This document shows, in pieces, positions 9,797-62,974 of a stretch of DNA of 64,000 nt. Under the pieces are notes generated by a model. That model was not told the DNA's origin. It searched no databases and saw nothing but the letters and a program-made list of their open reading frames with translations. Origin of the DNA: Nymphaea colorata (Eukaryota; Streptophyta; Magnoliopsida; Nymphaeales; Nymphaeaceae); assembly GCF_008831285.2 (NCBI RefSeq), contig NC_045143.1, positions 3,977,503 to 4,041,502 on the forward strand. Direction: 5' to 3'. Numbering within the stretch: position 1 is the first letter of the stretch; every line of letters begins with the position of its first letter. The translations under genes and the position numbers were made by a program.

Positions 9797-9836
<40 letters not shown>

Positions 9837-15217: not shown

Positions 15218-15867
15218 GGCTTACCTTTTGGATGGTTACCACTTTGAACATAGTCATTATATTACAGAGTATCACATTCGTACAACCATCATGCCCAAAT
15301 GAAAAAACTGGATGGGCTTAAAAATGTACGTATCAATTGTAAGGACTGAACCTGGGTTATATGATCATTTTTCTCTGACAATTGAACTCAAGGAGTGACC
15401 TATGTCAGCATGTTTCAAGTCTTTATTCTGAATTTCCTTCTTTCCTTTAGGTCAATGACAATAACAGTGACATTATCTTTTGTTCCCCGCTGAAGGGCAA
15501 GCTTAGAGAGATGCTCCGCTGCTGATTGTGCTGTAAGATCTATACCTTGACTCCTCTCAATAGAAGATGTCAAACCATTCTTTTTATACCAATGCAAAAT
15601 ACGTCGGCGAGCAATGTCACAAGCTTCTTCATTAGGAATGACGTCCCATAAGCCATCACTAGCCAATACAAGGCATTCATCTTCCTTCATGCGAGAAACA
15701 AATGTCACTTCAGGTTCAGGAATAATCCATGGTTTCAGATACCGATCACCTGATGCGGATGTGTACATGAGATTCATAAGCATAAATAGACAAAGATCTT
15801 CCAAGGTAAACATATTTATGCACTTGTTAACATTTGTGTCTACCCGCGCGTTTGTGCATGTGTTTGT

Positions 15868-15911
<44 letters not shown>

Positions 15912-17737
15912 GAAAATTGAAAAAAAAACGTGTAGGTTCTGGACAGTTGCAAAGCCAGTGGAACATCTATCTGTTATTTCCATTGCAAATGCAAAAGATA
16001 TTTGTCTGCTATTACCTTTAAAGTTTAAACACAGGAGGCTTCAGAACTCATATAAATTTGTGAACAAAATACGGAGTCCATTTCCAAGCATGCATATTTT
16101 AAAACACAATGGGCATCAAGCTACAGAGTTCTGCAAATGGTCCAAAAAGGCGGACAGAATAACCAGAGGTCTGTAGCGGCTAACGATGCCCACAAAGTGT
16201 TGTGGTGACAAATATAATGCTGTGCTTAAGCCCCAGTTGCAAGAACTAGAGGGACATGAAAAGACCAGCTCAAAGGGTTTTATTTACCAATTGATCTTGA
16301 CATGGCAAGGACACCAAATACACGATATCCATTCCACTGAATGACTTTCCCTCCAGCTGCTTCGATTCTGGAGTACTCATCCTCTCTGTTCGGCTGAAAC
16401 AGTCAAAGGAGGTCAGACATTGAAAGTAATAACTTTAGAAGAAGCATATGATATTAAAATCTGCCCTTACTTTATGATCGACAGAAAGTGGAATGGCTTC
16501 TTTACCACGGCAAAGTACAGCCCTCGAATCTCCACAGTTGGCCACAATTATCTGGTTGAAAGACAGAATAGCAACGACTGCAGTAGATCCTACAGTCTCG
16601 GGCGCAATAGGCTCTTTGCCACTATCAGGAGGAAGTGGTTCTTCATTGACCGTTGTTCCCGCCACTTCTGCATCAACCTTAAGAAAGCAACTAGTAAGTA
16701 TTTTCTCCCAGCATTTCTTCCAGCTGTTTTCATCAGGACCAACGTCATCAAAGCTCCGTAGCTCTTCGACCAATGCCTCATGGATCCGATCACGACAGTA
16801 ATTGGCAACCTGAAAATTGATATATAAAGAATTCAGAAAAAGAAATTTCCATCAGCTGATCCCATTCATAACTGCAGGATGTCAGTTATAAAGTAACCAA
16901 TGTGCACCTGGCAACCGCCATGGCCATCGTATACTCCAAAGAAATGCAATGCAGAGGATTCTGGATTCTGTGGTTGGGCACCGGTCAAGTGAGAATCACA
17001 TAGAAACGTGGCTGGAAGCTTTGTAAATCTTGGGACAGCAGCAAGAGCATCTTCCATTTCTGGTCGCCTTCCACAGATAGAAACACATCCCCAGGGAGGT
17101 TGGCAGTCCATGTCAGGACTAAATCTACGCTTGCCTCCAAGAACTGAACCAGTTAGATCAGAAGAAGCACGGTGAATAGGAACAGCAGGGATGTCGGTCA
17201 GCGTGGTTCGATCAGTCAAAGCATCTTCAGCGTTTGAAATGTTCGGACGACTGTCCAAAGGAGACCTTGCAATGTCGTGATTGTCAAATACTTCCGACAA
17301 AGCTCCGGCATCCTTGGGAATGGCCTCAAGATCGTTCAACCTAGGACTAGTATCATCAGCAGACTCTTCACCACCCCCACCACAAACGCTTCCACTATCA
17401 CTCAGGACCGAGAGAGAGCAAGAGTCTTCTGCTACCTGGTCACTTTGAGCAGCCAGGGAATCGTCCTCCTCGGCCACGTTACTAAAAGGCACGGAACTAA
17501 CACTCAACTGTTTCACTTCATCAGGAGACTCCGGTCTCGTAGTCGTACCATCATCCTCGCCTTCCGAGGCACCAATGCCAGAACAGGCTTCTGCAAATTT
17601 GGTCTCCAACGATTTGGCTGAGCACCCAACAACCTCCTCGCGGTCTAGATCTGATCTAAAACCGCATGATGCAATTTCATCAGAAGAAGCCATGGGCTGC
17701 AGAGCCGCGGTCGTGGACTCAGAAACGAAGCCAGTTG
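15218..17737 (-). repeat. right arm of recent PP2C inverted duplication
   Basis: This 2520 bp reverse-complement copy of 7971-10483 includes the rest of exon 1, exons 2-4, all three introns and part of the 3' flank. At 17737/17738 it joins an older PP2C exon 4 fragment with at most one shared base at the junction. At 15217/15218 it joins sequence unlike the left arm's continuation. Confidence 0.95.
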
Positions 17738-17864
17738 AAGATGTCAAACCATTCTTTTTATACCAATGCAAAATACGTCTGCGAGCAATGTCACAAGCTT
17801 CTTCATTAGGATTGACGTCCCATAAGCCATCACTAGCCAATACTAGGCATTCATCTTCCTTCAT
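15415..17864 (-). CDS. chimeric PP2C: inverted copy fused to relic exon 4 fragment
   Basis: Proposed exons, read on the - strand: 17864-16908, 16809-16471, 16393-16288 and 15749-15415, giving 578 residues with no stop. Exons 2-4 and most of exon 1 duplicate the intact + strand gene with three amino-acid changes (Leu to Pro, Val to Ala, Ala to Thr). Splice sites and all PP2C metal-binding motifs are kept, as is the lock tryptophan in QWNG. The normal first 41 or so residues are missing. They are replaced in frame by about 43 residues of catalytic-region sequence, [10 protein letters not shown] to KKNGLTSS, from a relic exon 4. Upstream DNA is relic and LINE sequence, not the original promoter. 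A shorter start at MASSDE (17693) is possible. Whether it is expressed is unknown. Confidence 0.6.
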
Positions 17865-18481
17865 GCGAGAAACAAATGTCACTTCAGGTTCAGGAATAAT
17901 CCATGGTTCCAGATATCGATCGATGATCTGCAGCAGAGTACATGAGATTCATAAGTGTAAAGTTCTTCCAAGGTAAAAATGTTAGATCTCATACTTGTTA
18001 ACATCTTATTTGTCTGCTGTGTGTGTGCAGGATCTGAATAGATAAGAAATTGCAAAGCCAACGAGTATCTTTCATTGATTTCCTTGCAGAGGTAAAAATA
18101 TTTGTCTGCTATTTCCTTTTATGACTAGAGGATTCATAACTCATACAACTTACAAGATTGTGAACAAGATATAGCCTTTCAGAACGTCAACTTCAGACGT
18201 CTGTTTTAAAACATAATGGGGATCGAGTTACAGAGTTCTGCTAACGATGTCATAAAGCGTTGCAGTGATAAATATCATGCTGTTCTTAATTAAGCTTCAG
18301 TCGCAAGAACTTGAGAGACGTGAAAAGAACAACTGTTATTACCAATTGATCTTAACATGGCAAGGATGTCCAATACAGGATATCCATTCCATTCTACAGC
18401 TTTACCTCCAGCTGCTTCAATTCTGGAGTATTCATCCTCTTCGTTTGGTTTATGATCGAAACAAAGATTTTCATGGTCCAA
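17738..18481 (-). pseudogene. older, diverged PP2C relic (end of exon 2, exon 3, intron 3, part of exon 4)
   Basis: On the - strand, about 18455-18344 encodes a diverged exon 3 ([18 protein letters not shown] onward). Its lock-tryptophan region reads EWNGY instead of QWNGY, and FGVLAMS has become LDILAML. Exon 2-like DHK joins exon 3 directly, so intron 2 is absent. Intron 3-like sequence of about 400 bp follows, then exon 4 from about 17925 to the junction at 17737. Exon 4 reads [10 protein letters not shown] and NPNEEA. Extra bases at its acceptor disturb the frame from exon 3. It is a truncated relic whose exon 4 end overlaps the chimeric frame. Confidence 0.8.
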
Positions 18482-19674: not shown

Positions 19675-22600
19675 TCAAGGCATCAAGTGAAGAGCATCTC
19701 TTGGACGGCCTAAGAGACTTAAAACAGTAGCTGCTATATGGTGGCCTGTCAATCCTGCCATAGAAAGCTGCTCCCTGGGAGAAGCCTGCCCTATGTATTT
19801 GTCTGGTAAAACAATTGGCCGCCACTGCAAAAAGAGCAAATAAACAACCACATGTTAATCTTAGACAAAGGGAATACTTTTGCTATTATAAAGGGGAGAG
19901 AGAAAGGAAGGAAAAAACTATAAATAAAGAACCCTTCGACATCCTAAAACTGGGATCTGAAAGTTGAAAACGCTTCTCTCTCTCTCTCTCTCTCTCTAAG
20001 GTGGTGCACTGGAAATTCTAATATGCCCCCATGTGCCCTTGGGTCGAAAATAACTTGCTGAAACTTTGAAGGTACAAATGGACTCACCAAGGTTTTCAAG
20101 TCAGAAATTACCTTGAATCATGATTTTCTGAAACAAAAGCATGCATTTTTAACCAGCAAATTCTAATGCACTGGAAGATGGTGGGTATCGACACCCTCCT
20201 CATTCCTCCTTAAACCTAAACTTGTGTTTATTAGGTAAACCACATATAAGACATAAGACATCCATCATTTTCTTCAACCATCTGAACCAGTGTTGCACAT
20301 ATTGTACAATAAGTAATGTAAATTATAATACCAATAATATACACCTTTGAAACTAGTTTCAGACAGATAATTTTGTAGTTTGTACAAATCCAACCATATG
20401 AAATAATTCAAAATGTCCAAAACTACAGAACTGGAAAAAGAAATCCATCATGTAGATCATATTTTATAAGGGTTGAAACACCACTGATGTTGATTTTTTG
20501 GGTCACAAATCCGATTTACACTGTCAAAAAATTGTGTTATGTATTTATTTATTTTTGAACATTCTGGGTGCATCAGAATAGTTGGATTCGTAAAAAGAGG
20601 TCAATACAGTCAATACACTGGTTCCTAGAAGCTATGCCCAACTATACTAACAAGTCAAGAAATTACCTTAACCCTTCCGTCAAGCTGGCCATCAAGTGCA
20701 AGAAATTGAGCAACATGTGATCCAAAGCCCCCAACTGTTCCTTCCTCTACAGTAATGAGGAACTCATGATTCCTACAGAGCTGCCGAAGAAGCTCAATGT
20801 CAAGTGGCTTGCAAAATCTTGCGTCTGCAACTGTTATTTGGACCCCCAAGTTAGCAAGCAAGGATTTGGCTTGAAGGCAGTTATGCACCATTACTCCATA
20901 TCCTAACAATGCAACATCTTTTCCCTCTGCAACGACTTTACCCTTGCCAATCTGAAAAGAAACAGACGCTGGTGTTTCAGACTCTACAGGCCATAAGAAG
21001 TATAAAACTTGTTCTCAGTGAGGAATGCATTGCCAGGTTTCAGCAACTATGGCAGAGTAAAAACAGGGTTAACTAGGATTTCTTAAGAAGCCTTGCATGG
21101 GCAAGGGTCTTTTTGAGTTCTCACACAAAGAACAAAAGAGACAAACCAACACCAATGTATGGTCCATGAAAAGTTCACCTTCTGGAGAATTCAGCTCAAA
21201 TTTTAGCTTAAGTGATGAGGTGAAGAAGGATGATTAGATAAGTTAGAAACAGTTCTACAACTACAAAAAATAAACATACTTCAAGTGGTTCTACACTGCA
21301 AAATAGTGGTTTTCTCAGTTCCACAATGGCTCCTCTGGGATAACGAAAACAAACTGGCCGGTCATCAATACGTGCAGCCGTAGCAACCATGCGAATCAAC
21401 TCTATTTCATCTGATGGTGCCATAACAATCATATTAGGCAAGCATGCCATGTATGTAATGTCAAATGCACCACCTAATGCTGGTCCATCTGATCCAACCA
21501 ATCCTGCACTTGTGATAGCAAATCGAACAGGTAAACGCTGAAGGTCAACATCTTGCACTACCTGCAAAGTTCAAAGACTTTGAGATTTTATTTTCCATGC
21601 TATGCAAATATGATCCTGCAAAATGAAAGGTGCAGTGCGTGCTGCAGAAACTAGTGAAGAAACAAGTGTAATAAAGGCACGAGAACCACAAACTGCAAAA
21701 TAAATTTCAACTGCTAGATATCTGTATTTAGAACCTCAATGTGTGTTACTTGGATTATATAGAAGTCTAAAATTTTCACTAGCTCACAGTCAAGATATCC
21801 AGAACATTTTAATAAAGAAGAGATCTTAAAGGCCAAGTATTAGAAGACATTTATCTAGTTCAGACAATACATTTTTCTTTGCAAAATTGAGCTTATCTAG
21901 TTGACCATTTCATAGATGATCCAATATAGCTTCCTTTCAATTTCAAATGTTAAGCTAGAAAAGCAAAAAGTTAAAGTCATGCTAACTTGGTCAAATCCTC
22001 TCTGCAGAGATGAAGAACTTATGATGCAAAAGGGCTTCAATCCACCGCATGACAATCCAGCAGCGAATGTGACTGCATGTTGCTCAGCCATCCCCACATC
22101 AAAATATCTGTCAGGAAATCTTTTTTGAAAGGCATGAAAAGATCGCTCCAGGCCAATACCAGAGTGAACTGCTACAATATCATTGTCTATCTCTGCTTGT
22201 TCAATTAAGGCGTCAACAAAACATTCTGTATATGTCTTAGTCGCACTCCCGACGTTGAACTTTGGGTATGAGGTTGAAGTGTTGGAAGTTAATCCATCTG
22301 CTGCACAGATGTGAGCACTATCAGGCGAAAATCATATACATGTGCACAATATCTAAATATCTCAACTTGAACATGTGATAAAGGTCCTGCTTCTGAATGA
22401 AATAAATCAACAGAAGCATTCACCACTTACAAAATTTAAAAGCAAGTCAATATATCATAAGCATAAAAAAACACAATGAGAGATAAAAGGAAGAAAAAAA
22501 TTGTCCAATCTTGCCAAAACAACTCCATTACAGAGGGAATTTCAGAGGCCCCATATGATACAAGTACTACAAAACAGAGATGTGATAAGTGATAACACTG

Positions 22601-25600
22601 TTGTGCTCCACATACCCCTTACGAGAATCACCATGAGATATTATGAAGTTGCAAAAAATAGAATGAAATGGGAAACAGTGATTCATAGAAGTAATACAGG
22701 AAGTAGGATATTCCAGGACACAAACTCCTAAGAATCATGAAAATAGTTCATTTTTATCACAAAATAAGCAGAAAATTTAGATGGAAACAAATTAGTTGGA
22801 ACTCATGTGCGAAGAACCAGATCCTAATACAAACTAATTCAAACGGCAGGGAACTGGAAACCACAATAGCTGAAAATAGAATGGCCAAGAACATGATTGA
22901 CTCAGTAACCAGTTAAGCTAAGGTTCATTGTCCAACAAGGAGCATGAATCGTGGGGAACATTTCAATGATGCAAAAGCACCCTCTTCTCCTTCAAAACTC
23001 TGTTGTCCCCAGAGAAAATATCCCCTTTTAATTTAATTAATAGTGATTAACATGTTGGACGCTGTTGTCGTTAAAAGCTTATCATTTTATCTGTGTATAT
23101 TATCAATGTCTTTACCGTCATTACTCATTAGAACTTTATTACATTATTTGAAAGATATAATCAATTGGGCATGAGTGATTTAGCCAGCATATTAGATCCT
23201 TAATCTGATGTTGAATACTGGGTTGTTAAGAATATTACTAATGTAAACCGGCCCATATTCGAATAAACTTTCAGGAAGCCCCTGTTGCACAATTGCCAAT
23301 GAAACCATCCTAGGTAATGATAGAAAAAGAAAATTGTAAGACACAAGGAATAAAAGTTTAGGTAGTAGCAAGTAAAGAAAACAATACAATTTACAAGCCA
23401 TCGACCAGATAAAATGAAAAGCAGAGTTCAGATAAACAATTTAGCAGTTGCACACAAACTTTTGATATCTTCTACCTACCATATCTTGGCATATCGGCGC
23501 CTCGTCCTTCATCAGTGATGACGTGAACTAGGACAGGTCCAGTTGACTCCAATGAAGCTACCTCTTGAAGAACACAGACAAGATCTTTAATATTGTGACC
23601 ATCAACAGGGCCTATGTAGTACAAGCCAAGCTCCTCAAATAGTGTAGAACCAGGTGGACCAATCATGCCTCGAGCATACTCATCAACTTTTGCCGCCCAT
23701 TGATGCATCCCTTGACCAAACCTTTTGGTTATGCCCTAAAAACAATAGTGAAAACAATGTGAATAGCTACTGACAATTAATATTTCTGATCATTATGTCT
23801 GTTTAAACACAATATGTATCACAAAAGTCATTATTCCAAATGGTTGAAATGTGAAATTCCATTGAGATAGGAAGTTATGGAAAAGTGAAAACATCCGAAT
23901 GCTCGGATAGCAGTTACCAACCACAAATTGCGAGTGCACAATTGAAAAAACAAATTTGTCCACATGAAATGCATAATCTGCACTTAACTTCATGTCAATA
24001 CAGAGCAGTTTGTGATCATTCAACAAGTGCACAAGGACTTACTAAAAATAAAGGGACAAAAAAATGGCTTCACATGTCCATAATATAAAAAAATTAATAT
24101 ATTTTCTTGACAAAAGTAGCAGCCAAATTAGAAATTCTAGCAGATAAAATATGTCTAACAACCGTCTGACTGACCTTTAAAGCTTCTCTAAATCTTCTGA
24201 AGGATTTGCTAGACTGGATCTTACTTAACGTACTGGAGAGTATGTTTACAGACATCTTTGGAGCATTTTCTGGCCTAATCTGCTGTAATGAATGCCTGGT
24301 ATCATTTAGTATAACTACCATATTTGAGTCGAGATATCCAGCATTGTTCATTGCCTCATAAACCTGGCCCGCCATGGTTGTTCCATTACTTATTACAGTG
24401 ACAATGCAATCCTTTTTTCCTTTAAGATCCCGAGCAGCAGCCATTCCTAAGGGCATTGTACAACAACCAACAATGACAGCGGCAAGGTAGCATCTTAGCA
24501 CACAGCCTTGAAAAAGTGGGGAATTCAGCACTATAGCAAATATGAGATGTGAAACAGATAGTCTAAAACAATAGACAATTCACTAGAAACATCGCGTCTT
24601 CACAAATAGATGTATAGATGTTTATGTGACCATTACATCTGAGGAACTAACTTCTTTGATTAACACTGTTGGCCCTCGTTCTCACTCTCTCTCAAACACA
24701 CACACACACAGACACTTATGGTTCCTCACCTAGCCCAGCAGAAATGCTGTTACATCCATGGCCAGCACCAAATGCATCATACTCACTTTCAAAGCGAGAT
24801 GTATAACCTGAAAGTCCATCTCTCTGCTTCAAAGTGTGCAACCGTGATCTTCTTCCAGTCAGGATTTTATGTGCATACGCCTGCTTAGGAATAAGAAAAA
24901 ATTTCTGGAGTTAAATATGTATATAAGGAAACAGGAAGGCAAAAATATGAGATAGTACTTTAAAGTAAGATTACAGCAGAAGACAATACCAAAGGATAAT
25001 ATCATGCCATGGGTGTCATTGCTATAAACATGCTATGGGTTCAACATTTATATTCCATATTACATCAACCTCTTCACTGTTTCCTGTTCACATTTCAACT
25101 ATGTGATTCGATCATTTCCAGGTCATCAGTTTACTAGAAACGATTGCTAACCATGGTCCGTTGCCTTCTTCTCCCATCCTTAAATTGCTAGACAGGACAT
25201 CGATTTTACTCTAACAATATATATGGGTTTCAAGTTTAATTTTACTTTTGGAGATGTGACAATTTCCAGGTGCTATCAACAGAACCATAAATCATTGAAT
25301 TGGGTCCTGATTTGCAGCAAGTGGAATTAATTCCATTATGGTCATAATACCTACTCGTTAGATTTAATCCAATATCTCCTACTACTGCCTTTCCCTACAT
25401 GGCATTTCCAAAGGCAGGTTGCAATGGCATCCTGCAATAATATGCCAGGAGCAATTGCCTCTGCCGCAGCAATCTTTTCAATGAAAAGAAGATTTTCAAG
25501 GAGCAGATGTCATCATTCAAAGCAGCAGCGGGTTGAAACTTTGCTTTTTGTTAAGGGCTATAGACTTATAGTGGTTGTGCCTTGTACTACGAACTATGAA

Positions 25601-36200: not shown

Positions 36201-37480
36201 ATGAACAAATCTGTCTTCTCCGATGCTCTAAAATATAGCTAACTAGTACATACTCGGGACATGTGTCTTAATCTGCTCTTCATTTGAAAGCAATACTGCA
36301 AGCTGACTATTTCAGGATCAAGCAACGTTGTTGAGTTAATAATCAAATGGATATTTAACTATAATGGAGTTATATCTTCCTCAATTGGACATGGAAGGTC
36401 ATTAGAAGATCAAAATGTTTGTGTTGTTTGTGATGATGAATTTGGTACTAGACAATCTCGAATGCCCAAAACGATGGATTGCTACCCACCTCCAGTAAAA
36501 AAAACAAGGGAGCCAACTACAGTGGGGTTGATGGTTTTCAATAATATCGCAGGAAGAAACACTTGGTAAAAGGGGTTGGTCTTTAAGGAGCAACATATAT
36601 ACTGAACAGAATTGAGAAAAATCAGAGCGACATTCTGGGGACATCAGGATTCGACATTGTTCAAAGTTTCTGCGAAGCTTATGCACCTTCAGGTTCCAAT
36701 TACAGAGAATAAAGCTGCTGTATGTTTTTCAGATAACGTTAAAGTTCTTTTCATCCAACGTTGAAAAACTGTATATATGTATCAATCAAATTAGCGCAGA
36801 TAGGTTGCAGCTTGCACCGATAGAGATCATCTATGGACCTCCCCATTGGAGGTTGTTTTGGAAAACATGTCTTTAGTGGTTTTCTCGAATCGTTGCACTG
36901 AAAGAAGAAAAGATTCAAGGGCCGCCAAAAAAGTTGAGTAACAATAAATTAAGAAGACACCAAGTTAATAAATAATAAGAAATTTTACTTGTATATACTC
37001 TTAGTTGGCATTAGTTTCCTCTAAACAGTACTTACTTTACAGATGGAGGAAAAGATTTCTATGTGCTTTGAGAATGTTAAAAAAATTCCAAAACCTGGGT
37101 GCTCTACATATATATAAAGCTCCGCGTGACTAATCATTCTAACTGGCTAATTGAAAGGATGGTTTGGTTCTCTTAAAATGAGAAGGGGCGGGGCACAAGA
37201 ACCGAAAAAGCTTCTTCAAGTGCATGGGAATTTGAAAGGCGTGAAGGGCCGGGACAATGAATGGATGAACTAAATAAGGGTAGCGTGGCCTCCGGAGATA
37301 ATGAAATGAAAGTAGCAGAAGCATCGATGAGCGTAAAGGTCGTCGGTGATCCTCGGAATAGAATAACAGATGGCATCAGATTGATTGATTGAGAGCTAAA
37401 AAGAAGAGAAAATTGGACCTTTTTCTTCCTTTATTAATGTGACGGCCTTTATTCTCAACCATCCTCGATCGTTGCTGCTC
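33240..37480. other. mostly unannotated intergenic DNA
   Basis: Apart from the duplication at 35261-35531, no gene, RNA or clear transposon is recognised. Open frames are below about 95 codons and show no family resemblance. Confidence 0.55.
35261..35531. repeat. tandem duplication, second unit internally deleted
   Basis: Unit 1 (35261-35412) and unit 2 (35413-35531) both start TGCCACTCGTGGCTATGTAA. Both also contain AGGATAATTAAGTTTATTTT and TTTTGCTCCACGGTCAAAAA. Unit 2 lacks about 30 bp from the middle. A TA microsatellite follows at about 35531-35551. Confidence 0.85.
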
Positions 37481-37490
37481 TTCATCGAGC

Positions 37491-37501
37491 ATATATTTAT
37501 A
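37491..37501 (+). promoter_or_regulatory. TATA box of MIR156 transcription unit
   Basis: ATATATTTATAGG lies about 180 bp upstream of the miR156 hairpin, a usual distance for a plant pri-miRNA. The start site would be about 25-35 bp downstream. The array at 52.6 kb has a similar TATTTATA. Confidence 0.55.
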
Positions 37502-37674: not shown

Positions 37675-37769
37675 GGAGGTGACAGAAGAGAGTGAGCACA
37701 CATGGTGTCTTCAGCATGAAAAGTACTCGTGCTCGAAGCTATGCGTGCTCTCTCTCTGTCTGTCACCCC
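37675..37769 (+). ncRNA. MIR156: MIR156 precursor hairpin (single copy)
   Basis: The mature 20-mer TGACAGAAGAGAGTGAGCAC lies at 37680-37699 and matches canonical plant miR156. The opposite arm GTGCTCTCTCTCTGTCTGTC (from 37745) pairs with it. GGAGG and CACCCC extend the lower stem, and about 45 bp separate the arms. miR156 directs silencing of SPL transcription factors and controls the juvenile-to-adult phase change. The hairpin resembles the tandem units at 53.4-54.0 kb, so it is probably a dispersed relative. An identical mature sequence, paired star arm and upstream TATA support function; expression is not shown. Confidence 0.88.
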
Positions 37770-51041: not shown

Positions 51042-52599
51042 TTCTTGAGCACCAGCAACCTCTAGATTTTATTATTCGATTATCTGCCTAAAGGTATAGT
51101 GGGATACGTTCTCACAAGAAAATAAGCTTCTGCATATATTCTTTCTCGGGACTTTCGTCATCAAAGATGACCTACTTCTTCATAGCCATTACCTGTAAGT
51201 TAGATTCATTGAGGCTGATCATTGTCCCACGTAAATTTGAAGTTACTATAAAAAAATATGCAACTTGCAGTATGAATTGGTATGCCCTTCAGTTGACCTA
51301 CTATATAGAAAGAAGCTAGAGCGCGCTTTCAGAAGTTAATTTGTAGTGGTACCATTAATGTGTTTCTTTAATCTAGGGAGATTCTATATATTCTGCAGTT
51401 TATACCTTGAAGGCTTGCTGCTTCACCTCCTCCATATTGATGATGCATATCAAATCCACTTCGGATTCATGGCGGGATTGTCTAGTGGAGCTTGAGCATC
51501 TTTTTCATTTATAGAATTATTGTATCATAAGCCCATAAAATGCTGATCGAAAAGGTAATGATCAAATTCTTTGGTTCAGTGGTCCTGCTTAGCTCCTTCC
51601 CCAGGAATTTAGTGTAATTTTCTATTGCTTTAATTATACAACACAGATTTGTTGTGCGCTTTTAGCTGAAGGATATTAACATGGCATTAAATAATGAAGT
51701 GATATAGTCCAAATAATATTGCTTTGGAATCAAGATCGACGTCACAAAGACATATATACTTGTCCCGGCCATGTCCAAATGATGATAATGAGCAGGAAGA
51801 ATTTGTCCAGTGGACTTAGCGATGCCTACATGCTAAGGAGATCTATCAAAATGGTACACCAATAAATCCAAGTTCTGATGTTATGAAGCAGTTGGTTGTC
51901 GAGAAAAAAGATTGTTTATGGTTCATTTTGTAAGGGATGATTTAGACAAGGACTGTAAAGAAACATGTTCTGATTCTTCAGATCAGATATGTACAAATCA
52001 AGATGTGCGGTCCAAATAACAGGCATAAGAAATGCGCTACTTTTGCTAAAAAGTATGCAATTGTTCATGGCGTCCATAGTTATTATATTTAACTGCGTGT
52101 GGGAGAATGATTTTCTTTTTGAAAGAGCTATAGAAGAATGTTCGATCGGTTATATCATACGTCATCAAGCGACATATAGTTTCTGTCGGAATTAAGGCAC
52201 CCTCGTTGTAACGTAAGGGATGAGATTAGGCAACTTTATCTTTTTTAGGCAAGAAAGATTTATGAGCATAAAACAAATTGTGGGTGACGAGGAAGGACCC
52301 AAAGGAAAAGCAGAAGGCAGGAGAACCAACAAAACAACAAAATAAATACAATATAATATACATTGAATGCAGTGCAATTTGATTGGTTGGGAATGGAGGT
52401 GGTGATAAGGGAAAGGGAAGAAGGTTTGAGAATTTAAGAGGCATTGGTAGTCGTAATGGGGAGTAAATAACGGAATAAATGTTGGATAGCGTCGACTGGG
52501 AGAGGGAAATTGTTATTTTAATTACAAAAAGACCGAGTAGCGCGGCTACAGTTACCTTTATTCTCGGCCACATGGACTGCTTTCTTATCCTACAGCCGC

Positions 52600-52607
52600 T
52601 ATTTATA
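52600..52607 (+). promoter_or_regulatory. TATA box upstream of the MIR156 array
   Basis: TATTTATA followed by CCGGCCC lies about 150 bp before the first miR156-like segment and about 770 bp before the first perfect hairpin. I infer one promoter driving a polycistronic precursor. Individual units have no obvious TATA box of their own. Confidence 0.5.
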
Positions 52608-52752
52608 CCGGCCCATGTCCTCTGCAAAGTGGCCATGGAGTGCGGTTCCAAATTGTCCATGGCTGGCTTGAGCGTTGGGCATGATGAAGGAAGCCGTATC
52701 CTTCTTGCTTGTTGGTGTTTGCAGATAACGTTGAGAGGTTCTGTAAAGTAAT

Positions 52753-52830
52753 GGAGGTCACAGGAGAGTGGGCATGGATTGTGATCCCTCCGTGCTTAAC
52801 CTTACTTTGTGCCTTTCTCTCTTCTTTCTC
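52753..52830 (+). pseudogene. decayed MIR156-like unit A
   Basis: GGAGGTCACAGGAGAGTGGGC resembles the 5' arm but has several changes and a deletion inside the mature region. A pyrimidine-rich 3' arm (TTTCTCTCTTCTTTCTC) follows. It is unlikely to give normal miR156. Confidence 0.45.
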
Positions 52831-52870
52831 GAACCATCGATCGTGAATCATGGTTTTTCTGTCTAAACCA

Positions 52871-52940
52871 GGAGGTGACAGAAGAGACTGAGCATAAGGT
52901 GATCCGGCATGAGACCTGCTCACTCTCTTTCTGTCACCCC
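52871..52940 (+). ncRNA. variant MIR156-like hairpin B
   Basis: The 5' arm TGACAGAAGAGACTGAGCAT (52876-52895) differs from canonical miR156 by G to C at position 13 and by its last base. The 3' arm TGCTCACTCTCTTTCTGTCA (52918 onward) pairs well, and the loop is only about 22 bases. It folds as a compact hairpin and could make a variant miRNA, but the mature sequence has changed. Confidence 0.5.
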
Positions 52941-53071
52941 AAGCGAAAGAAATCATGCTGTGTGTGTCTGTGTTTCTGATGCCCGCAAGCCAGATATCTC
53001 CATTTATTTCATGGGTGTAGTTGGAACTCTGGATCATAGCTTCTCTCGCTTGGCTAAGAGTGGCCTAAAGC

Positions 53072-53099
53072 TGTGCATACTCACTCTCTTATTGTCACC
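53072..53099 (+). pseudogene. decayed MIR156-like unit C (3' arm only)
   Basis: The 3' arm TACTCACTCTCTTATTGTCA and its downstream flank (CAAGCGAGAGAAATTATGC) match those of unit B. The 5' arm is no longer recognisable. Confidence 0.45.
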
Positions 53100-53199
53100 T
53101 CAAGCGAGAGAAATTATGCTATTTCTTCCGTGTGTCTGTGTGCTCTTCACTGTTCTTTCGAACGGATTAGAACCATGGATCATGGCTTGTCCCTGGTGT

Positions 53200-53275
53200 C
53201 GGTGTGACGATAAGAGACTAAGCACAAATGGTGCTTTGGAGTTATGCGTCCTCACTCTCTTGCTGCCGGCCGTCA
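53200..53275 (+). pseudogene. decayed MIR156-like unit D
   Basis: The 5' arm TGACGATAAGAGACTAAGCA carries several substitutions. The 3' arm CCTCACTCTCTTGCTGCCGG contains an insertion before GTCA. The downstream flank AAGAGAAATCATGCC matches unit B, so B, C and D form one older subfamily. Confidence 0.45.
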
Positions 53276-53367
53276 AACAAGAGAAATCATGCCATTTTGT
53301 GTGTGTTGTTCTTGATCTTTATTAATTCTTCCAGGTTGCTTCACGACTATTGGCTTCTCTGAACTGT

Positions 53368-53460
53368 GGAGGTGACAGAAGAGAGTGAGCACACATGGTG
53401 CTTTCATGCATGAGTGTTCATACTTGAAGCTATGCGTGCTCTCTCTCTCTCTGTCACCCC
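53368..53460 (+). ncRNA. MIR156: MIR156 hairpin E (tandem array unit 1)
   Basis: Canonical miR156 lies at 53373-53392 within a 93 bp fold-back running from GGAGGTGACAG to CTGTCACCCC. The star arm is GTGCTCTCTCTCTCTCTGTC. GGTGACAGA and AGCAC pair perfectly, with a small bulge in the CT run. The spacer downstream carries CAGGTGAGT, a consensus 5' splice donor, at 53479-53487. This is the first of five units with the same mature sequence. Confidence 0.9.
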
Positions 53461-53511
53461 AAAGTAGGAGAAGTTAAGCAGGTGAGTTTGTAGTATGGCT
53501 TCTCCATGTAT

Positions 53512-53604
53512 GGAGGTGACAGAAGAGAGTGAGCACACATAGTGCTTTCATGCATGAGGTTTCATACTTGAAGCTATGCGTGCTCTCTCTCTCTCTGTCA
53601 CCCC
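53512..53604 (+). ncRNA. MIR156: MIR156 hairpin F (tandem array unit 2)
   Basis: Canonical miR156 lies at 53517-53536, exactly 144 bp after unit E. The loop differs from E by a few bases (ATAGTGCTTT, GAGGTTTCAT), and the star arm is identical. The following spacer has CAGGTGATT, so the donor-like motif seen in other spacers is damaged here. Confidence 0.9.
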
Positions 53605-53655
53605 AAAGAAGGAGAAGTCAAGCAGGTGATTTTAGAGTATGGCTTCTCCATGCAT

Positions 53656-53748
53656 GGAGGTGACAGAAGAGAGTGAGCACACATGGTGCTTTCATGCATG
53701 AGAGTTCATGTTTGAAGCTATGCGTGCTCTCTCTCTCTCTGTCACCCC
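53656..53748 (+). ncRNA. MIR156: MIR156 hairpin G (tandem array unit 3)
   Basis: Canonical miR156 lies at 53661-53680, 144 bp after unit F. The 93 bp fold-back has the same star arm as E and F. Its loop carries GAGAGTTCATGTTTG. The next spacer keeps CAGGTGAGT at 53764-53772 but has lost a few bases, which explains the 141 bp step that follows. Confidence 0.9.
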
Positions 53749-53796
53749 AAAGTAGAAGTCAAGCAGGTGAGTTTGCAGTATATCTTCTCCACATAT

Positions 53797-53887
53797 GGAG
53801 GTGACAGAAGAGAGTGAGCACACATGGGATTTTCTTGCATGAGAGCTCATGCTTGAAGCTATGCGGGCTCTCTCTCTCTGTCACCCC
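53797..53887 (+). ncRNA. MIR156: MIR156 hairpin H (tandem array unit 4)
   Basis: Canonical miR156 lies at 53802-53821. The star arm is shorter by one CT repeat and reads GCGGGCTCTCTCTCTCTGTC, so one base pair opposite the miRNA 3' end changes. The spacer after it carries CAGGTGAGT at 53905-53913. Confidence 0.88.
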
Positions 53888-53937
53888 AAAGCAGGAGAAG
53901 TCAGCAGGTGAGTTTATAGTATGGCTTCTCCACATAT

Positions 53938-54031
53938 GGAGTTGACAGAAGAGAGTGAGCACACATGGGGGTCTTCCTGCATGGGAGCTCATGCTTGGGG
54001 GTATGTGTGCTCATTCTCTCTCTGTCACCCC
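53938..54031 (+). ncRNA. MIR156: MIR156 hairpin I (tandem array unit 5)
   Basis: Canonical miR156 lies at 53943-53962, preceded here by T rather than G, so a 21-nt TTGACAG form is possible. The star arm GTGCTCATTCTCTCTCTGTC is the least repetitive of the array and pairs better through the centre. The loop is G-rich (CATGGGGGTCTTCC). This is the last perfect unit. Confidence 0.9.
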
Positions 54032-54115
54032 AGCTACGAGAATCCATCTGTTTTTATTACAATTTTCCCTTTTCTCCCCTTTAGCCATGGAATTGTGGCG
54101 AAGGACCCTCACTTT

Positions 54116-54202
54116 ATATGGAGCAGGGATGATGATTTTTGTATGCTAGGAGTTCAAGCCTGAAGAAATGCGTGCTTTCTAGCTCTCTGTCAGTCAGACC
54201 CC
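54116..54202 (+). pseudogene. decayed MIR156-like unit J
   Basis: The 3' arm remnant GCGTGCTTTCTAGCTCTCTG followed by TCAGTCAGACCCC matches the array star arms with insertions. The 5' arm region (TATGGAGCAGGGATGATG) keeps only the GGAG and spacing. Fainter, similar pieces may continue to about 54530. Confidence 0.4.
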
Positions 54203-54539
54203 TAAATGTTAGGAGCTATGTTTCATGTCTATATGCAGCCGGGTGTGATTTTGTCCCTTATTGGTACCTCCATGACTTCTGATTTCTTGCGGTGAAGGTA
54301 CAAGCCTAAAAAAGCTATGTTTCCTCGACTTTCTGTGACAAGTGCTAGGAGATCTCTGAAAGAGATAGAGAAAGAGAGAACAGCTTACCAGTTCCCACAC
54401 TTTTGGAAGCAGAAGATATGTTCTTGTCTGCCCTTTTTACTTTTTCCTTATGGTAAAGACTTTCTGTCTGTGTCAATTGTCACATGTATGGAGAAGGTAC
54501 TTTTCCTCTCTCCCTCTCTCTGTATGTTCTCTCTTCTTA

Positions 54540-57390
54540 TATCTCTTCACTCATTAATAGCTTTTGTCAGTAGTCAGTACAGGTCACTGCAGGTTTAGTA
54601 CTTTGATTAACTCCTTAGCTCGTGCACCTATTAAAGCTTGAGAAGAGAAGAGTGAGATGGGGACTTAACTGAAGAGTGATGCTTCATCCTTGTGCAAATG
54701 GATCCATTACAAGATTTTCCAAGTTGAACAAGAGCCTTCGTGAACGAATCTTTTAGAATCAAGCGGTTATTAAGGAGTACTGTATTTCTACAATCGGCTG
54801 TTTGTCATTCTGAGGAGAATAAAAGCTAGCAGTGCCGTCCTTAGCTCGTTTGAGCTTTGCTTCGAGAAGAGAACTGATGTTCAGAAGGTTAAAAACCTGA
54901 TTGAGGTCTTAAAGCTAAATATTTTTAGTGGTTTATTTATACTGTCTAAATGTAATTGGCTGAGATCTGCCCAGCTTCAGCTTTAGTAAAGAAGCAAGTT
55001 CACAAATAATGCGCCAGTCATACTTGGTTGTGAAAAGGATTTACATAATATCAAGAATTTGTTTATTGGCAGCCTTCTGCTAAAAGATGTGTGATTGTTT
55101 CCATGCCTAAGTGCCTGTCAAAGTCAAGTTTTCTCTTTTGCACCACAATATCAACTTCGTAGGATAAATCTATCCTAAGGTTGACGAGAAATATAAAGCG
55201 GCCACCGCCATAATAAACTGGACACTTAACCATAGCAAGAAATCACCGGCATTAAGATGCGCCTTACTGACTACAAGGGAAAATTTTTCTTCCGCAGTCA
55301 ACCCTTGTCATCTTCCCTTTATTAAACTAAATTTTTACCGAAGTTATTTTTTAGAATCATTTACTGAACTTTCGATCATGAGTCTCCTTAGAAGGCAATT
55401 CAGTGTTCAGTGCACAATAACTTGTTATCGTCTTCTGGATGTTGATCAGTTTGTATTGTGGCCGGCTGGTGCTTCGTCTCGGTTTCTTTCTGGTTTGGCG
55501 CCATCTAATTCGTTAATGGCTTCTACATTAAAGACGCACGTTCATAAGCACCTGGCACCATTCCTTCCAAAACAGTCTTGCTTCGTCGTCATGTATGATC
55601 TACAGGCTAGCTAACAGACCATAGATCAGGCCAGTGAATATTTTCCAGAAAGGAAAAGACATGTAATCTTATCATGTCCAGGGAATTAATTGTGACTTGA
55701 AAAGTCCAGCCTTTTGAGAAGAGATATGGGACGACCAACAGTATAATTTCACATACCGTCATTGAACAAGGTACCAACTACCAAAGCAAAAAGAACCTTG
55801 ATCTGATCACTTATAGAATTTTCTTTTTCACCGGTCATGATAACAATCTCTCTCTGGTTCTCATTTACAAGACACTCATTTACAATAACAACTGTTGCAG
55901 GAATACTGCTGCTACAGATTTGTTACAGATGATAAATTAAGAATCTGATCAAGTAACCGAAGCTTCAGGAGCTGGAGCATCTCTATCGCATGACGTCGAT
56001 TATCTTTATCACCAACAGAATTGTGTTGTCTTGATTACTATCACCAACAGAAACTGGTTGGTTATTATCTTCAAATCCGTAGCTGAGCAATGAAACTAAT
56101 GGTTTCAGAAAAAACTGACTGAATCAGATAAAACCTCCACATAAGAGGAATATTATTCAAACCCCCTCTTTAGCAAAGCATGGACGAGGATGGGGCTAAT
56201 TAGGACTAAGAAAGTCTACTAATGGATAGTTCGCGGTCCGGGGAGTTAAAGATGAGCTGGTGCCTGCAAAAGAATCCTCATTTGTACATTTTCCGTGAGA
56301 GCTTCTTCATGAGTTCATTATCTTAGAAAATTTGCTGTAAATTATATTCAGAGAATGCTTATCCAAGATAAAATCTTGTGAATACTTGGATTTCAATACT
56401 GTCCTAGATTGCCTTTTGGCCGTTTCTTATTTGCTCATGAATGCCTACACAGCTCCGACTGGATTGTCATGACCCTATAGAAAGATGACAAGGTTGTGTC
56501 CAACATCCTATTAATAGACGCCAACTTATAAGATGCCAATACTTTGATTAGACCATTCGAGACAGAGCAATGGTGCATCTAGACTTTATCTAACTAATCT
56601 CTTCATGAGCTAAATTGCATGGTTTGGTTTAATTCATTGGGGAAACTTGCTAGACTTGAAGACTCTAAACACAAAGACTCTAAACACAAAGGCTACACTT
56701 AGGGCAGGATTTTTTTCAAGGGTGAGTCAAAAAATCCAACCTTTGAAGAAGGTGGAGCCAAATTGGACCTGAATCCAAATAATATGTGGTCCAACTAAAA
56801 TTTTTTAATTTTTTCAATATAATTTTTTTTTTCAATTTGCTAGGGTGGGAGCCATGTAGTCCACTTCGCTCGCCACCCTCCCTGGCTACACCGTGTACTA
56901 TTGCAAGCACTATGCAATTGCTACTCTCCATGTTGAAATTAATAGAGACCAAATGGAGATGCCTGAAACCGCGGTCCCAAGGTCAACGACGTTGGACCGA
57001 ATTTTCGTAAAATATATGTCCTATACATGAATATCAGGAGACATATTTTGGCTATGTTACTGCAAGGCTCTTAGGCCATTTTTGAGGTCCTATGATATTG
57101 TCGAACTTAGAATCTCATGCTCTTATATATCTGAACAAACCTGCATATTTAATGAGCATTATGCAGCATAATAAGCGGATAAGCATGCATATTGCACCTT
57201 CTGGAGGAAATTTAATTAATGGCAAAACAAATTGCAGTGCTTTTCTATTCAAATATGCATGTCCATACTCTTTCCAAAACAAGCGGGCGTTCGCCTGTAT
57301 GCTTGCCAAGATCCACCTAACCAAGCTCATTAAGTGTGAATCTTCCTTCTAATTGCTTTGGTTTATTCAGGGCATTCCTTGATCGCATTT
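54540..57390. other. intergenic, no supported gene
   Basis: No protein family, RNA or clear transposon is recognised. A short 17-base tandem repeat (AGACTCTAAACACAA) occurs near 56660-56695. Confidence 0.5.
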
Positions 57391-58310: not shown

Positions 58311-58683
58311 TGTTGGGTAATGGCCTTGAGCCCGATCCATTTCCCTCTATAACTGCAAAGGAGATCCTGCAGTTATGGAATTAAAGCAGGAAATAAATCA
58401 AATATTAAAGTTTCCGTTTTAATTCTTACCATAAATCTTCATGCCATAACCGTAGCTGGGATTTGGGGAAACCCTGAGAGGCGGTCTATATAGCCCAGCC
58501 TCTATTCATCTAAAGGTGACGTTGAGAAATCAACTGCGCGTCTCTCAGAAGCAAACCCCCAAAATCAATTTTACTCTTACTTCTTCCCTTTTCTCTTCTA
58601 TTTTGTCGCAGGTGCTGCTGTTGAATCGTGGCTAAAGAATCACCAAAACCTTCCGCTGCTATACTTCTTCAGAGTTTCCATCA
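58311..58683 (+). repeat. 5' LTR of the copia element
   Basis: TGTTGGGTAA to TTTCCATCA. A TATA box (TCTATATAG) lies at 58485-58493 and is the likely promoter for the genomic RNA. The 3' LTR differs only at the position matching 58579. Confidence 0.97.
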
Positions 58684-58684
58684 G

Positions 58685-58696
58685 TGGTATCAGAGC
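58685..58696 (+). other. primer-binding site (initiator Met tRNA)
   Basis: TGGTATCAGAGC starts two bases after the LTR end and is complementary to the 3' end of plant initiator methionine tRNA, the usual copia primer. Confidence 0.95.
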
Positions 58697-58712
58697 CACG
58701 GTTCTTCCAAAA

Positions 58713-61700
58713 ATGACTTCAAGAGTGGGAGCCTCTGAACTAGCTAAGACTGAAAAACTCAGTGGAAATAATTTTCATGCATGGAAACGTAGGATCATGT
58801 TGGCCTTAACTCTAGAAAGACTGATTTATGTTATCAACAAGCCCTTTCCTACTTTAGGAGACAAACCTACTGATGAGGAAAAGAAGGAATATGAGGCGTT
58901 TGAGAATGATGACTTGATGGCCAAAACCATCATGTTAACATTCATGGAAGATGATCTGATCAGAGTGTTTGAAGACTGTCCAACAGCAAAAGATATGTTA
59001 GATAGTATTTCATCCAAATTCAACACCACTACTACTATGCATGTTCAATTGTTGCTAGAACAGTATACCTCGTATAAAATGAAGGAATCAGATAGAGTTG
59101 TTGACCATGTTAACAAAATGTTGGTCATGGCTAAGGACCTAGCAGTAGTGGGAAATGTGATATCTGATAACATGCAAATATGCACCATTCTGAATAGTTT
59201 ACCATCTTCTTGGGATATGGCTGTCACTGCGTTGAGTCTACAATTTGACACTTTGAATCTAGAGAAACTCCCTATACAATTAGCTATTCATCAAGAACGT
59301 TTGACCAAGAGAAATGATGTAGAACTTATGAATGTTCAAGAAAAACCAACAAATCTTGCGCCTATAAGGTCTAAAGACTTTAAAAAGAAAAACGATGGCA
59401 AGTTCAAAGGAAATTTTGCAGGAACTCCAAGAACTCAAGGAACTGTAGTGAAATGTTACAGATGTGGGAAGCCTGGACACATCAAGAAGAACTGCAGGAC
59501 AAAATTCTCGAACAAGAAGGACAACAAGATTCAGAACAAAGGAAAAGACCATGAGAAATACAATGAAGAAATCATTTGTGTTGTGTCAGAGTGTTTGTTT
59601 GCAGATGGAGATTTAACTGGTTGGTGGGTCGACTCGGGAGCTACACGTCACATTGCAAAAACAAAAGAAGGCATGATTCGTATGGAAAACCTAAGTCTGG
59701 GAATGCAAAAGGTTTATATGGGTAACAACTCATACTGTGATGTAATGGGAGTTGGCACATATCGACTGAATATTGGGGGCACAAGCGTCATTCTTACTGA
59801 AGTCTTGTATGTTCCTTCTATGCGGAGGAACTTAGTGTCAGTCCCTGTTTTGACTGGAAAAGGTTTTGAAGTTCGTTTTGTTCCAGGAAAAGTCACAGTA
59901 GGAAAACATGGGAGGACCATGTTTGATGGAAAATATGTTAAGGAACATGGTATGTTCAAACTCAATGATATGAATAAATCTTCCAGTTCTGCTTATACTG
60001 ATTGTGCGATGAATGTGAGTACAAATCTATGGCATGAAAGATTAGGCCATGTAAGCATCAACAAAATGAAACTTCTAGCACAACAAGGTATTATACCTGA
60101 CATTAAAGCAAATGATTTCACGAAATGTGAAGTATGTTTATATGAAAAGATGACAAGAAAACCCTTTCCATCTGAAGTAATACGGGCCATTGATCTATTG
60201 AAAATAATCCACACCGACATTTGTGGACCTTTTAGAGTCCAAACACATAGTGGAAAGTTATATTTTATAACTTTTATTGATGACTTTTCAAGATTTGGAT
60301 ATATTTACCTTATTAGATATAAGTCAGAAGCACTTGAAAAATTCAAGGAATATAAATCTGAAGTCGAGAGACAACTTGGGAAAAACATCAAGGTTATAAG
60401 GTCTGATCGAGGAGGTGAATATACATCAAATGAATTCCTCGAACACTGCAAAGACCTTGGAATTAATAGGCAAAGAACAATGCCTAGGACACCGCAGCAA
60501 AATGGTGTCGCTGAGAGGTGTAACAGAACCCTTTTGAACATGGTGAGATCTATGTTGGCAGGTGCACAATTACCCAAAGTTTTTTGGGGAGAAGCTGTTT
60601 TAACAGCCATGTATACTATTAATCGAGTGCCCTGCAAGGCAGTCCCAACCACTCCTTATGAGAGATGGACTGGTATGAAACCAGACTTAAGACATCTTAA
60701 GAGATGGGGATCTGTAGCACATGTAAAAATTTTAGATTCAAAAATGGATAAACTGGATATCAGATCAGTAAGATGTGTGTTTATTGGATATCCAAAAGGA
60801 TCCAAAGGCCCAAAGGCTACAGATTATATCACTCTACTATGGGGCTCATAGAAAGTAGAGATGTAGAGTTCCTTGAAGAACTCAATAACATTGATAATAA
60901 TCCAGTAAAAGATCACAATGATCTATTGGAGGACCTGATTTATTCAGATGATCAGTCTGGCAAGGAACCGACTGGAGTACAATCTGGTAATGAACCGACT
61001 ATAGATCAGTTTGGCAATGAACCAACTGAGCAAGAATTGATTAGAATACAGTCTGGTAATGAACCGATTGTGGATCAGTCTGGTAATGAACCGACTGAAG
61101 ATCAGTCTGGCAATGAACCGACTGGGGATCAGTTTGGTAATGAACCAACTGAGTATGAAATTACTGGAATACAGTCTGGTAATGAACCGACTGGAGATCA
61201 GTTTGGTAATGAACCAACTGAGCATGAAATGTCTGGTGTACAATCTGGTAATGAACCGACTGGGGAACAGTTAGGCAATGAACCAACTGATCCAAATACC
61301 TTATCAACTCAGACTTTGTTAGGTCATAAAAGACCTAGGGCTCCACCTTCATATTTGAGTGATTATTATGTATATCTTGCAGAGGAGCTATGCTGTTTAG
61401 TAGATATTGACGAAATGTCTGACAATCTGACATATGATGATGCGATAAATTCGCATGAATCATCAGATTGGGTGAACGCTATGGATGAGGAAATTGAATC
61501 CATAGAAAAGAATAAAGTCTAGGAATTAGTAGATCTTCCTAATGACAGAAAACCCATTGGATGTAAATGGGTGCTAAGGAAGAAGTATAAAGCTAACGGA
61601 TCAGTCGAAAAATTCAAAGCCAGACTGGTAGCGAAAGGTTTTTCCCAAGAGGAAGGAATTGATTATTCAGAGACCTATTCGCCAGTTGCAAAGTTTGCAT

Positions 61701-62974
61701 CAATCAGAATAATTTTGGTTATTGCGGCATTCTATGACTTAGATATTTGTCAGATGGATGTAAAGACTGCTTTTCTGAATGGTGAGTTGAAAGAAACTAT
61801 ATATATGACTCAACCACAAGGATATGTTATCAAGGAAAAAGAAGACAAAGTGTACAAGTTGAATAAATCGTTGTATGGACTGAAACAGTCTCCTAGACAG
61901 TGGTATTTTGCTTTTCACAAAGCAATTACAAAACTTGGGTTTGTTGCAAACCAACTGGATCACTGTGTGTATGTTTGGAAAAGTGGGAGCCTTTTCTGTA
62001 TTCTATCATTATATGTTGATGACATATTACTAACTGGAAATGATAACGATATGATTGTCAAAACGAAGACTTGGCTGAACAAAAACTTCGAAATGAAGGA
62101 CTTGGGTGAAGCTTCATACATATTAGGAATAAAGATCACTCGAGATAGAGACTCAAGAATTCTGAGTTTGAGCCAAGAACGATATATTGATTATATCCTA
62201 AAGAAATTTCGAATGCAAGATTGCAAACCAATTGGAACTCCCATAGCTAAAGGAGCAAATCTAAGCAGGAACGATTGTCTTGGAGAAGAACATCAGAAAT
62301 TACATGTTCCTTATGCACAGGCTGTTGGTAGTCTAATGTATCTAATGTTGTGTACCAGACCTGACATAAGTTTTCCTATCGGTCTGGTAAGTCGTTATCA
62401 AAGTAATCCTGGATGGCCACATTGGCAAGCAGTAAAAAGGATTTTTCGGTATATTAAAGGAACAAAAGGACTGAAATTGTCCTACTAAGCTAATGAGCTG
62501 ACCTTAGTTGGCTATTCAGATGCAGATTTTGCAGGATGCAAAAACGATAGTAAGTCTACATCTGGTTATGTATTCCTTTTTGGAGGTGGAGCGATAGCCT
62601 GGTCCTACAAGAAGCAGGGATGTGTTGCTCAACACACACAAGAAGCAGAATATGTAGCATGTAATGTTGCCACCACATTTGCTGTCTGGATAAATCGGTT
62701 CTTGAAAGACTTGAAATTAGATCTTGATCATGAACCAGTTCAACTATATTGTGATAATCAGGCAGCGATATCACTTATGAAAAATGGAGCTGTGAGCTCA
62801 AAGAGTAAACATATAATGGTGAAATACCATTATGTTCATGAAATGATTGAGAAAAATGAAATCTCAGTCGAATACATGCCTACCAATGACATGGTAGCAG
62901 ATCCCCTTACCAAGGGAATATCAGAAGACTTGTTTACCAAGCATGTAGCCCATATGAGGCTGAGATATATTTGA
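58713..62974 (+). pseudogene. copia gag-pol polyprotein, one frameshift and two in-frame stops
   Basis: Frame 1 (58713-60851) holds gag with a CX2CX4HX4C knuckle (CYRCGKPGHIKKNC), the protease motif VDSGATRH, the HHCC zinc region (WHERLGH, CEVC) and the integrase core (HTDICG, RSDRGGEY, NGVAERCN). An exact 8-bp duplication, CCAAAGGC at 60802-60809 and again at 60810-60817, shifts the frame. The downstream frame continues through an SGNEPT repeat region to an in-frame TAG (61520-61522). RT follows (KARLVAKGFSQ; YVDD at 62012-62023), then a TAA (62486-62488), and finally RNase H (YSDADFAG, EAEYVA, YCDNQAA) to 62974. All later segments share one frame, so only these three lesions separate them. 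The element should be unable to make full pol by itself. Confidence 0.95.
60953..61288 (+). repeat. coding minisatellite (SGNEPT units) between integrase and RT
   Basis: About eleven units of a 24-base motif coding for DQSGNEPT-like octapeptides, with S/F/L and N/K variants. Some units are separated by spacers such as EQELIRI or EYEITGI. The region lies in the variable linker between integrase and RT. Other frames also stay open here because of the repeat and are not genes. Confidence 0.9.

What the first reader, a model, noticed from the sequence alone, without database searches (positions are those of the whole stretch)
52753..54202. Tandem MIR156 array with five identical mature miRNAs
Five complete hairpins (53368-54031) carry identical TGACAGAAGAGAGTGAGCAC at steps of 144, 144, 141 and 141 bp, all on the + strand with one TATA box upstream. 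Two-hairpin MIR156 clusters are known from grasses (maize Corngrass1, rice miR156b/c). Five intact units plus decayed neighbours is unusually large. If processed from one transcript, it would give a high-dosage source of the SPL-repressing miRNA.
Basis: partly seen in the sequence, partly recalled or inferred. Interest (0 to 1): 0.85.

Follow-up and report, generated by a model that had tools for sequence, protein, structure and literature searches.

The report
Five-hairpin tandem MIR156 gene cluster
A plant chromosome carries five intact back-to-back copies of the microRNA156 hairpin, a known regulator of the juvenile-to-adult switch, behind what looks like a single promoter; the kind of cluster is known, but this one is larger than the two-copy clusters I found described for this microRNA.

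Summary
In detail: five exact copies of the miR156 20-mer at 53373, 53517, 53661, 53802 and 53943, one strand, steps 144/144/141/141. All five hairpins pass Rfam's MIR156 cut-off and fold far better than shuffles. Tools add four things. (1) A sixth, divergent but well-paired hairpin (52876) and three decayed units belong to the array. (2) One promoter-like block lies upstream and none inside; the same block precedes the four other MIR156 units found and occurs nowhere else in the 144,000 bases scanned (the pattern was written from these five sites). (3) The array is the core of a wider locus: 9 of the 10 MIR156 hairpins over cut-off found in this 408-Mb genome lie in 41.7 kb of contig C6, all on one strand (counts are lower bounds). 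(4) Nine of 17 SBP-domain loci carry a matching target site. A single polycistronic transcript is likely but unproven; no RNA data were available. The MIR156 clusters I found described have two hairpins; larger homologous clusters are known for MIR395. This is a large member of a known kind. Assembly size fits Nymphaea colorata (inference).

The parts
52556..52607 (+). promoter-like block of the array: CTTTATTC at 52556, TATTTATA at 52600
   Evidence: activity not tested
52746..52784 (+). doubtful trace of a first, decayed unit
   Evidence: 7.5 bits, E 0.22; z -1.0
52875..52937 (+). divergent sixth MIR156-like hairpin; mature-like TGACAGAAGAGACTGAGCAT at 52876-52895
   Evidence: RF00073 45.2 bits (cut-off 62); 48.0 bits; one unpaired mature position; z -3.4, 1 of 200 shuffles as good
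53063..53119 (+). decayed unit, 3' arm only
   Evidence: 18.5 bits, E 8.8e-5; z -2.7, 3 of 200 shuffles as good
53180..53292 (+). decayed unit, both arms recognisable, hairpin lost
   Evidence: 32.3 bits; z 0.0
53372..53457 (+). MIR156 hairpin U1; mature 53373-53392
53516..53601 (+). MIR156 hairpin U2; mature 53517-53536
53660..53745 (+). MIR156 hairpin U3; mature 53661-53680
53801..53884 (+). MIR156 hairpin U4; mature 53802-53821; star arm 2 nt shorter than in U1-U3
53942..54028 (+). MIR156 hairpin U5; mature 53943-53962
54139..54207 (+). decayed unit after U5, mostly 3' arm
   Evidence: 26.0 bits; z 1.5
37447..37501 (+). promoter-like block of the single upstream MIR156
37679..37766 (+). single MIR156 hairpin of the same wider locus; mature 37680-37699

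Best explanation
A MIR156 gene with five intact hairpins and one divergent one, grown by head-to-tail duplication of a unit of about 144 bp behind one promoter. RNA polymerase II would make one primary transcript starting a few tens of bases after the TATA-like box at 52600; DCL1 would cut each local hairpin and release up to five copies of the same 20-nt miR156 per transcript, which represses SPL genes and so prolongs the juvenile phase. Shown here: the sequence, the hairpins, an invariant mature arm in units that have otherwise diverged, one promoter-like block, target sites beside SBP-domain exons. Inferred: one transcript, processing of every unit, the dosage effect, the role in phase change (known for miR156 in other plants).
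For: Five exact mature copies and five hairpins over the MIR156 cut-off, strong folds, duplexes with 0 to 2 unpaired mature positions. Among the five units 0 of 20 mature columns vary, against a mean distance of 0.18 in the loop, 0.21 and 0.30 in the flanks (0.07 in the opposite arm, 0.08 in the five bases before the mature); 0 of 20 by chance draw of columns has probability 1e-4. One promoter-like block upstream, none inside; the block stands before each of the five MIR156 transcription units found and nowhere else in the 144,000 bases scanned on both strands. Same strand and spacing under 150 bp; a survey of plant clusters calls same-strand clustering under 1 kb highly suggestive of co-transcription (PMC2812943, passages). 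Maize miR156b/c is one transcript by RACE (PMC2773440, passages). In this genome 9 of 17 SBP N-terminal segments have a miR156-complementary site on the matching strand 0.2 to 5 kb downstream.
Against: No RNA evidence of any kind. With no limit on pairing distance the best fold of 53340-54060 pairs four of five units with one another and is 21 kcal/mol better than the all-local fold; folding of growing prefixes gives the local hairpin at once for U1, U2 and U4 but not for U3 and U5. The promoter pattern was written from these five sites, so finding them is by construction; for the unit at C6:4056759 the TATA-like part is weak (TATCTGTA). U4 has a shortened star arm. An extended lower stem is better than shuffles in U1, U2 and U5 but not in U3 and U4.
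Confidence: 0.77

Rival explanations
1. The units are independent genes, each with its own start, or are transcribed by read-through from elsewhere.
For: Four other MIR156 units found in the genome each have their own promoter-like block.
Against: No CTTTATTC in 52400-54800 other than 52556 and no TATA-like site in 52400-54400 other than 52600 for the patterns tried; the spacers between the five units are about 55 bp.
Confidence: 0.1
2. A decaying, silent tandem repeat: the five look alike because they are young, and no selection keeps them.
For: At least three units of the same array have decayed; U1 to U3 are 95-97% alike in the core, so partly recent; U4 has lost two star-arm bases.
Against: U4 and U5 differ from the others at 9 to 19% of core positions and by more in the flanks, yet their mature arms are identical; all five keep strong folds.
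Confidence: 0.1
3. An assembly error that multiplied or collapsed copies.
For: Tandem arrays are often misassembled (general knowledge); raw reads were not available.
Against: Each unit has its own substitutions and indels and the flanks are distinct; the array is under 1.5 kb, short for long reads (the N. colorata genome was assembled from PacBio reads, if this is that assembly).
Confidence: 0.03
4. Units pair with each other in the transcript and form long double-stranded RNA that is diced into siRNA-like products rather than miR156.
For: Without a distance limit the lowest-energy folds pair units with each other. Alternative folding with a shared stem arm in tandem MIRNA hairpins is reported in Brachypodium (PMC4053937, passages).
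Against: With pairing limited to 120-200 bases all six hairpins form locally; homologous MIR395 and MIR156 clusters face the same problem and are accepted MIRNA genes.
Confidence: 0.07

Closest known systems
Two-hairpin MIR156 clusters: rice, maize miR156b/c (Corngrass1), sugarcane, sorghum, Ipomoea nil (PMC2358906 and PMC2773440; passages seen)
   Same: Tandem MIR156 hairpins on one strand, under 600 nt apart; one transcript in maize by RACE
   Different: Two hairpins against five intact and one divergent here; here a regular step of 141-144 bp
MIR395 homologous clusters of rice and maize (PMC2812943 and PMC2773440; passages seen)
   Same: Many near-identical hairpins packed in a short stretch, presumed single promoter; in maize two clusters 10 kb apart, comparable to the wider locus here
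   Different: Other microRNA family and targets; rice reaches eight units in 497 bp, so the copy number here is no record among plant MIRNA clusters
MIR157-type hairpins of the same genome (C2 twice, C8, C11)
   Same: Related mature sequence TGACAGAAGATAGAGAGCAC on a strong hairpin
   Different: Dispersed, no CTTTATTC in the 520 bases upstream, below the RF00073 cut-off

Membership tests
MIR156 microRNA genes (RF00073) | canonical mature sequence on the 5' arm | tested here: met
   five of five units
MIR156 microRNA genes (RF00073) | covariance-model score over the curated cut-off | tested here: met
   five of five intact units; not met by 52876 (45.2 of 62 bits)
MIR156 microRNA genes (RF00073) | mature and star pair within one hairpin with few unpaired positions (annotation rules recalled, from no call) | tested here: met
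   1, 1, 1, 2, 0 unpaired mature positions in U1 to U5; U4 star 19 nt
MIR156 microRNA genes (RF00073) | complementary sites in SPL genes of the same genome | tested here: met
   9 of 17 SBP N-terminal segments; gene models not built, and a dedicated target search failed
MIR156 microRNA genes (RF00073) | small-RNA reads for mature and star | not testable with these tools
   no RNA data held
Homologous polycistronic MIRNA cluster | related hairpins, same strand, under 1 kb apart | tested here: met
Homologous polycistronic MIRNA cluster | one shared promoter | tested here: inconclusive
   one promoter-like block and none inside; activity not tested
Homologous polycistronic MIRNA cluster | one primary transcript | not testable with these tools
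   no RNA data held

The most novel reading that the evidence does not exclude
A six-hairpin MIR156 polycistron is the main source of miR156 in this plant, and switching between local hairpins and pairing between units sets how much miR156 each transcript yields, so that copy number and folding together set the length of the juvenile phase in an early-branching flowering plant.
Probability: 0.1. Interest if true: 0.7.

Novelty: new member of a known kind. Interest (0 to 1): 0.45.

Why it matters
miR156 acts by dose: its decline times the juvenile-to-adult switch in the plants studied. A locus that holds 9 of the 10 MIR156 hairpins found in a genome, five of them identical and probably in one transcript, would let copy number be tied to dose and timing in one place, and shows duplication, retention and decay of microRNA hairpins side by side in one array. 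If the plant is a water lily, it also shows that MIR156 clustering is not confined to grasses and Ipomoea.

Tried and rejected
Rejected: a twelfth unit at 54230-54350. Left open: a unit at 52746. Rejected as general: a conserved extended lower stem that would guide base-to-loop cutting; it is better than shuffles in U1, U2, U5 and in the decayed 53055 unit, but not in U3, U4, 52876 or 53203, and processing modes differ within the miR156 family (PMC8688358, passages). Compensatory changes: 2 of 27 consensus pairs over 12 sequences have a kept double change, and the covariation term is +0.83, so covariation gives little support. The hairpin tree is mostly unresolved (0 of 8 inner branches starred; U1, U2 and U3 group at 89/88), so I do not say which unit is ancestral. 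Matches on the minus strand are what near-palindromic hairpins give; I did not follow an antisense reading. Papers: ten searches listed no MIR156 cluster of more than two hairpins and no description of this locus in the titles, abstracts and passages I saw; the library holds open-licence papers only, and I read passages, no paper in full. The N. colorata genome paper has no occurrence of miRNA, microRNA or miR156 in its main text. No plant relative could be searched: the collections hold prokaryotes, phages, plasmids and E. coli.

Full report
Observation. The window holds five exact copies of TGACAGAAGAGAGTGAGCAC at 53373, 53517, 53661, 53802 and 53943, all on the + strand, in steps of 144, 144, 141 and 141. 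There is a sixth exact copy at 37680 and one with two mismatches at 52876. None is expected by chance (largest of 100 shuffles 0). Tandem Repeats Finder reports 53367-54032 with period 144.

Hairpins. All five units and the single one at 37679 pass the RF00073 gathering score of 62 bits (67.5 to 81.8 bits). The five units fold at -62.5 to -70.6 kcal/mol with z-scores of -6.0 to -9.2; none of 200 shuffles folds as well. For a 20-nt mature, U1 to U5 leave 1, 1, 1, 2 and 0 mature positions unpaired. The star of U4 is 19 nt against 21 in the others.

More of the array. A profile of the five units finds four further members: 52851-52959 (48.0 bits), 53180-53292 (32.3), 54139-54207 (26.0) and 53063-53119 (18.5). 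A trace at 52746 (7.5 bits) is close to a background hit (6.4 bits) and I leave it open. The unit at 52876 still folds into a duplex with one unpaired mature position and a short loop (z -3.4, 1 of 200 shuffles as good) but lies below the Rfam cut-off (45.2 bits). Its mature-like sequence, TGACAGAAGAGACTGAGCAT, differs from miR156 at two positions. I count five intact hairpins, one divergent hairpin and three decayed units.

Selection. Among the five intact units no mature column of 20 varies, while the mean pairwise distance is 0.18 in the upper stem and loop, 0.30 and 0.21 in the two flanks, 0.07 in the opposite arm and 0.08 in the five bases before the mature. If variable columns fell at random over the unit, 20 invariant ones would have probability 1e-4. 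Columns are not independent in near-palindromic repeats, so this is a guide. U1 to U3 are 95-97% alike in the core and probably the youngest copies; U4 and U5 are 81-91% like the others.

Genome context. The window is C6:3977503-4041502 of an assembly of 407,766,735 bases in 783 contigs. The exact 20-mer occurs eight times in it: five in the array, one at window 37680, one at C6:4056760 and one at C1:30487927. With RF00073, ten hairpins exceed the cut-off; nine lie in C6:4015181-4056844, all on the + strand, and one on C1. Only 59 of 22,009 first-look candidates were scored, so these are lower bounds. The nine are the single at 37679, the five of the array, a pair 231 bp apart (C6:4045883, whose mature begins with C, and C6:4046114, with one change), and a single at C6:4056759. 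Four MIR157-type hairpins (TGACAGAAGATAGAGAGCAC) lie on C2 (two), C8 and C11; they do not reach the RF00073 cut-off.

Promoter. Upstream of each of the five MIR156 transcription units found (single, array, pair, single, C1) stands CTTTATTC followed after 30-75 bases by a TATTTATA-like box. In the 144,000 bases scanned (window and eight 10-kb stretches, 1,502 bases counted twice) the combined pattern occurs five times, at these five places only. For the array it is at 52556 and 52600, and there is none inside. The pattern was written from these sites, so only its absence elsewhere, inside the array included, is informative. The last C6 unit has a weak box (TATCTGTA). None of the four MIR157-type loci has CTTTATTC in the 520 bases upstream.

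Targets. A 1-mismatch scan for TGACAGAAGANAGNGAGCAC gave 26 places, with one hit for the reversed control pattern: eight exact MIR156 copies, the two of the pair, four MIR157-type, nine on the strand opposite to SBP-domain exons, and three unassigned (C2:6404741, C2:6430140, C6:24910130). The nine lie 0.2 to 5 kb downstream of SBP exons in the orientation of the gene. One search lists 17 N-terminal SBP segments, so 9 of 17 have such a site. Gene models were not built.

Folding of the whole. When pairing is limited to 120, 150 or 200 bases, all five hairpins and 52876 form locally. Without a limit, units pair with each other: in 53340-54060 four of five do, with a gain of 21 kcal/mol (-371.3 against -350.0). 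Prefixes that end just after each hairpin give the local form for U1, U2 and U4 but not for U3 and U5. At a limit of 80 bases the mature arms of U2 to U5 pair partly with the arm before them. Any homologous cluster has this problem; stem sharing between tandem hairpins has been described in Brachypodium (PMC4053937, passages).

Mechanism. Most likely one RNA polymerase II transcript carries all hairpins and DCL1 releases up to five identical miR156 molecules from it, aimed at SPL genes. The first steps (sequence, hairpins, one promoter-like block, target sites) are shown; one transcript, processing and dose are inferred.

Known relatives. Two-hairpin MIR156 clusters are reported from rice, maize, sugarcane, sorghum and Ipomoea nil (PMC2358906, passages), and maize miR156b/c is one transcript by RACE (PMC2773440, passages). 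MIR395 clusters reach eight hairpins in rice (PMC2812943, passages). My ten searches listed no MIR156 cluster of more than two, in a library of open-licence papers only. The locus is therefore a large member of a known kind.

Organism. The N. colorata genome paper gives 409 Mb in 804 scaffolds, with 14 pseudo-chromosomes (PMC7015852, passages). The assembly here has 407.8 Mb in 783 contigs. The identification is an inference from size and contig number only.

Noticed in passing
window 7799-10286 (+) and 15415-17948 (-): Two near-identical copies of a protein phosphatase 2C gene in opposite orientation (PF00481 in both; ORFs); the second copy seems rearranged, with a C-terminal piece fused ahead of an N-terminal piece.
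   Followed up: partly
window 21208-24579 (-): Exons with transketolase pyrimidine-binding domain matches (for 21208-22331), probably a DXS-like gene (name recalled).
   Followed up: no
window 58494-62974 (+): Ty1/copia-type retroelement with an RVT_2 domain between the array and the two-hairpin MIR156 unit; it has a repeated insert around 60950-61290.
   Followed up: no
L020:5884-5903 (C6:4045884): A MIR156 hairpin with the highest score in the genome (85.2 bits) whose mature starts with C instead of T; the 5' base is known to steer Argonaute loading (recalled), so its product may be sorted differently.
   Followed up: no
C2:6404741 and C2:6430140 (L030, L031): TGACAGAAGACAGTGAGCAC twice, 25 kb apart, without a miR156-like hairpin in the folds tried and without an SBP match nearby.
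   Followed up: partly
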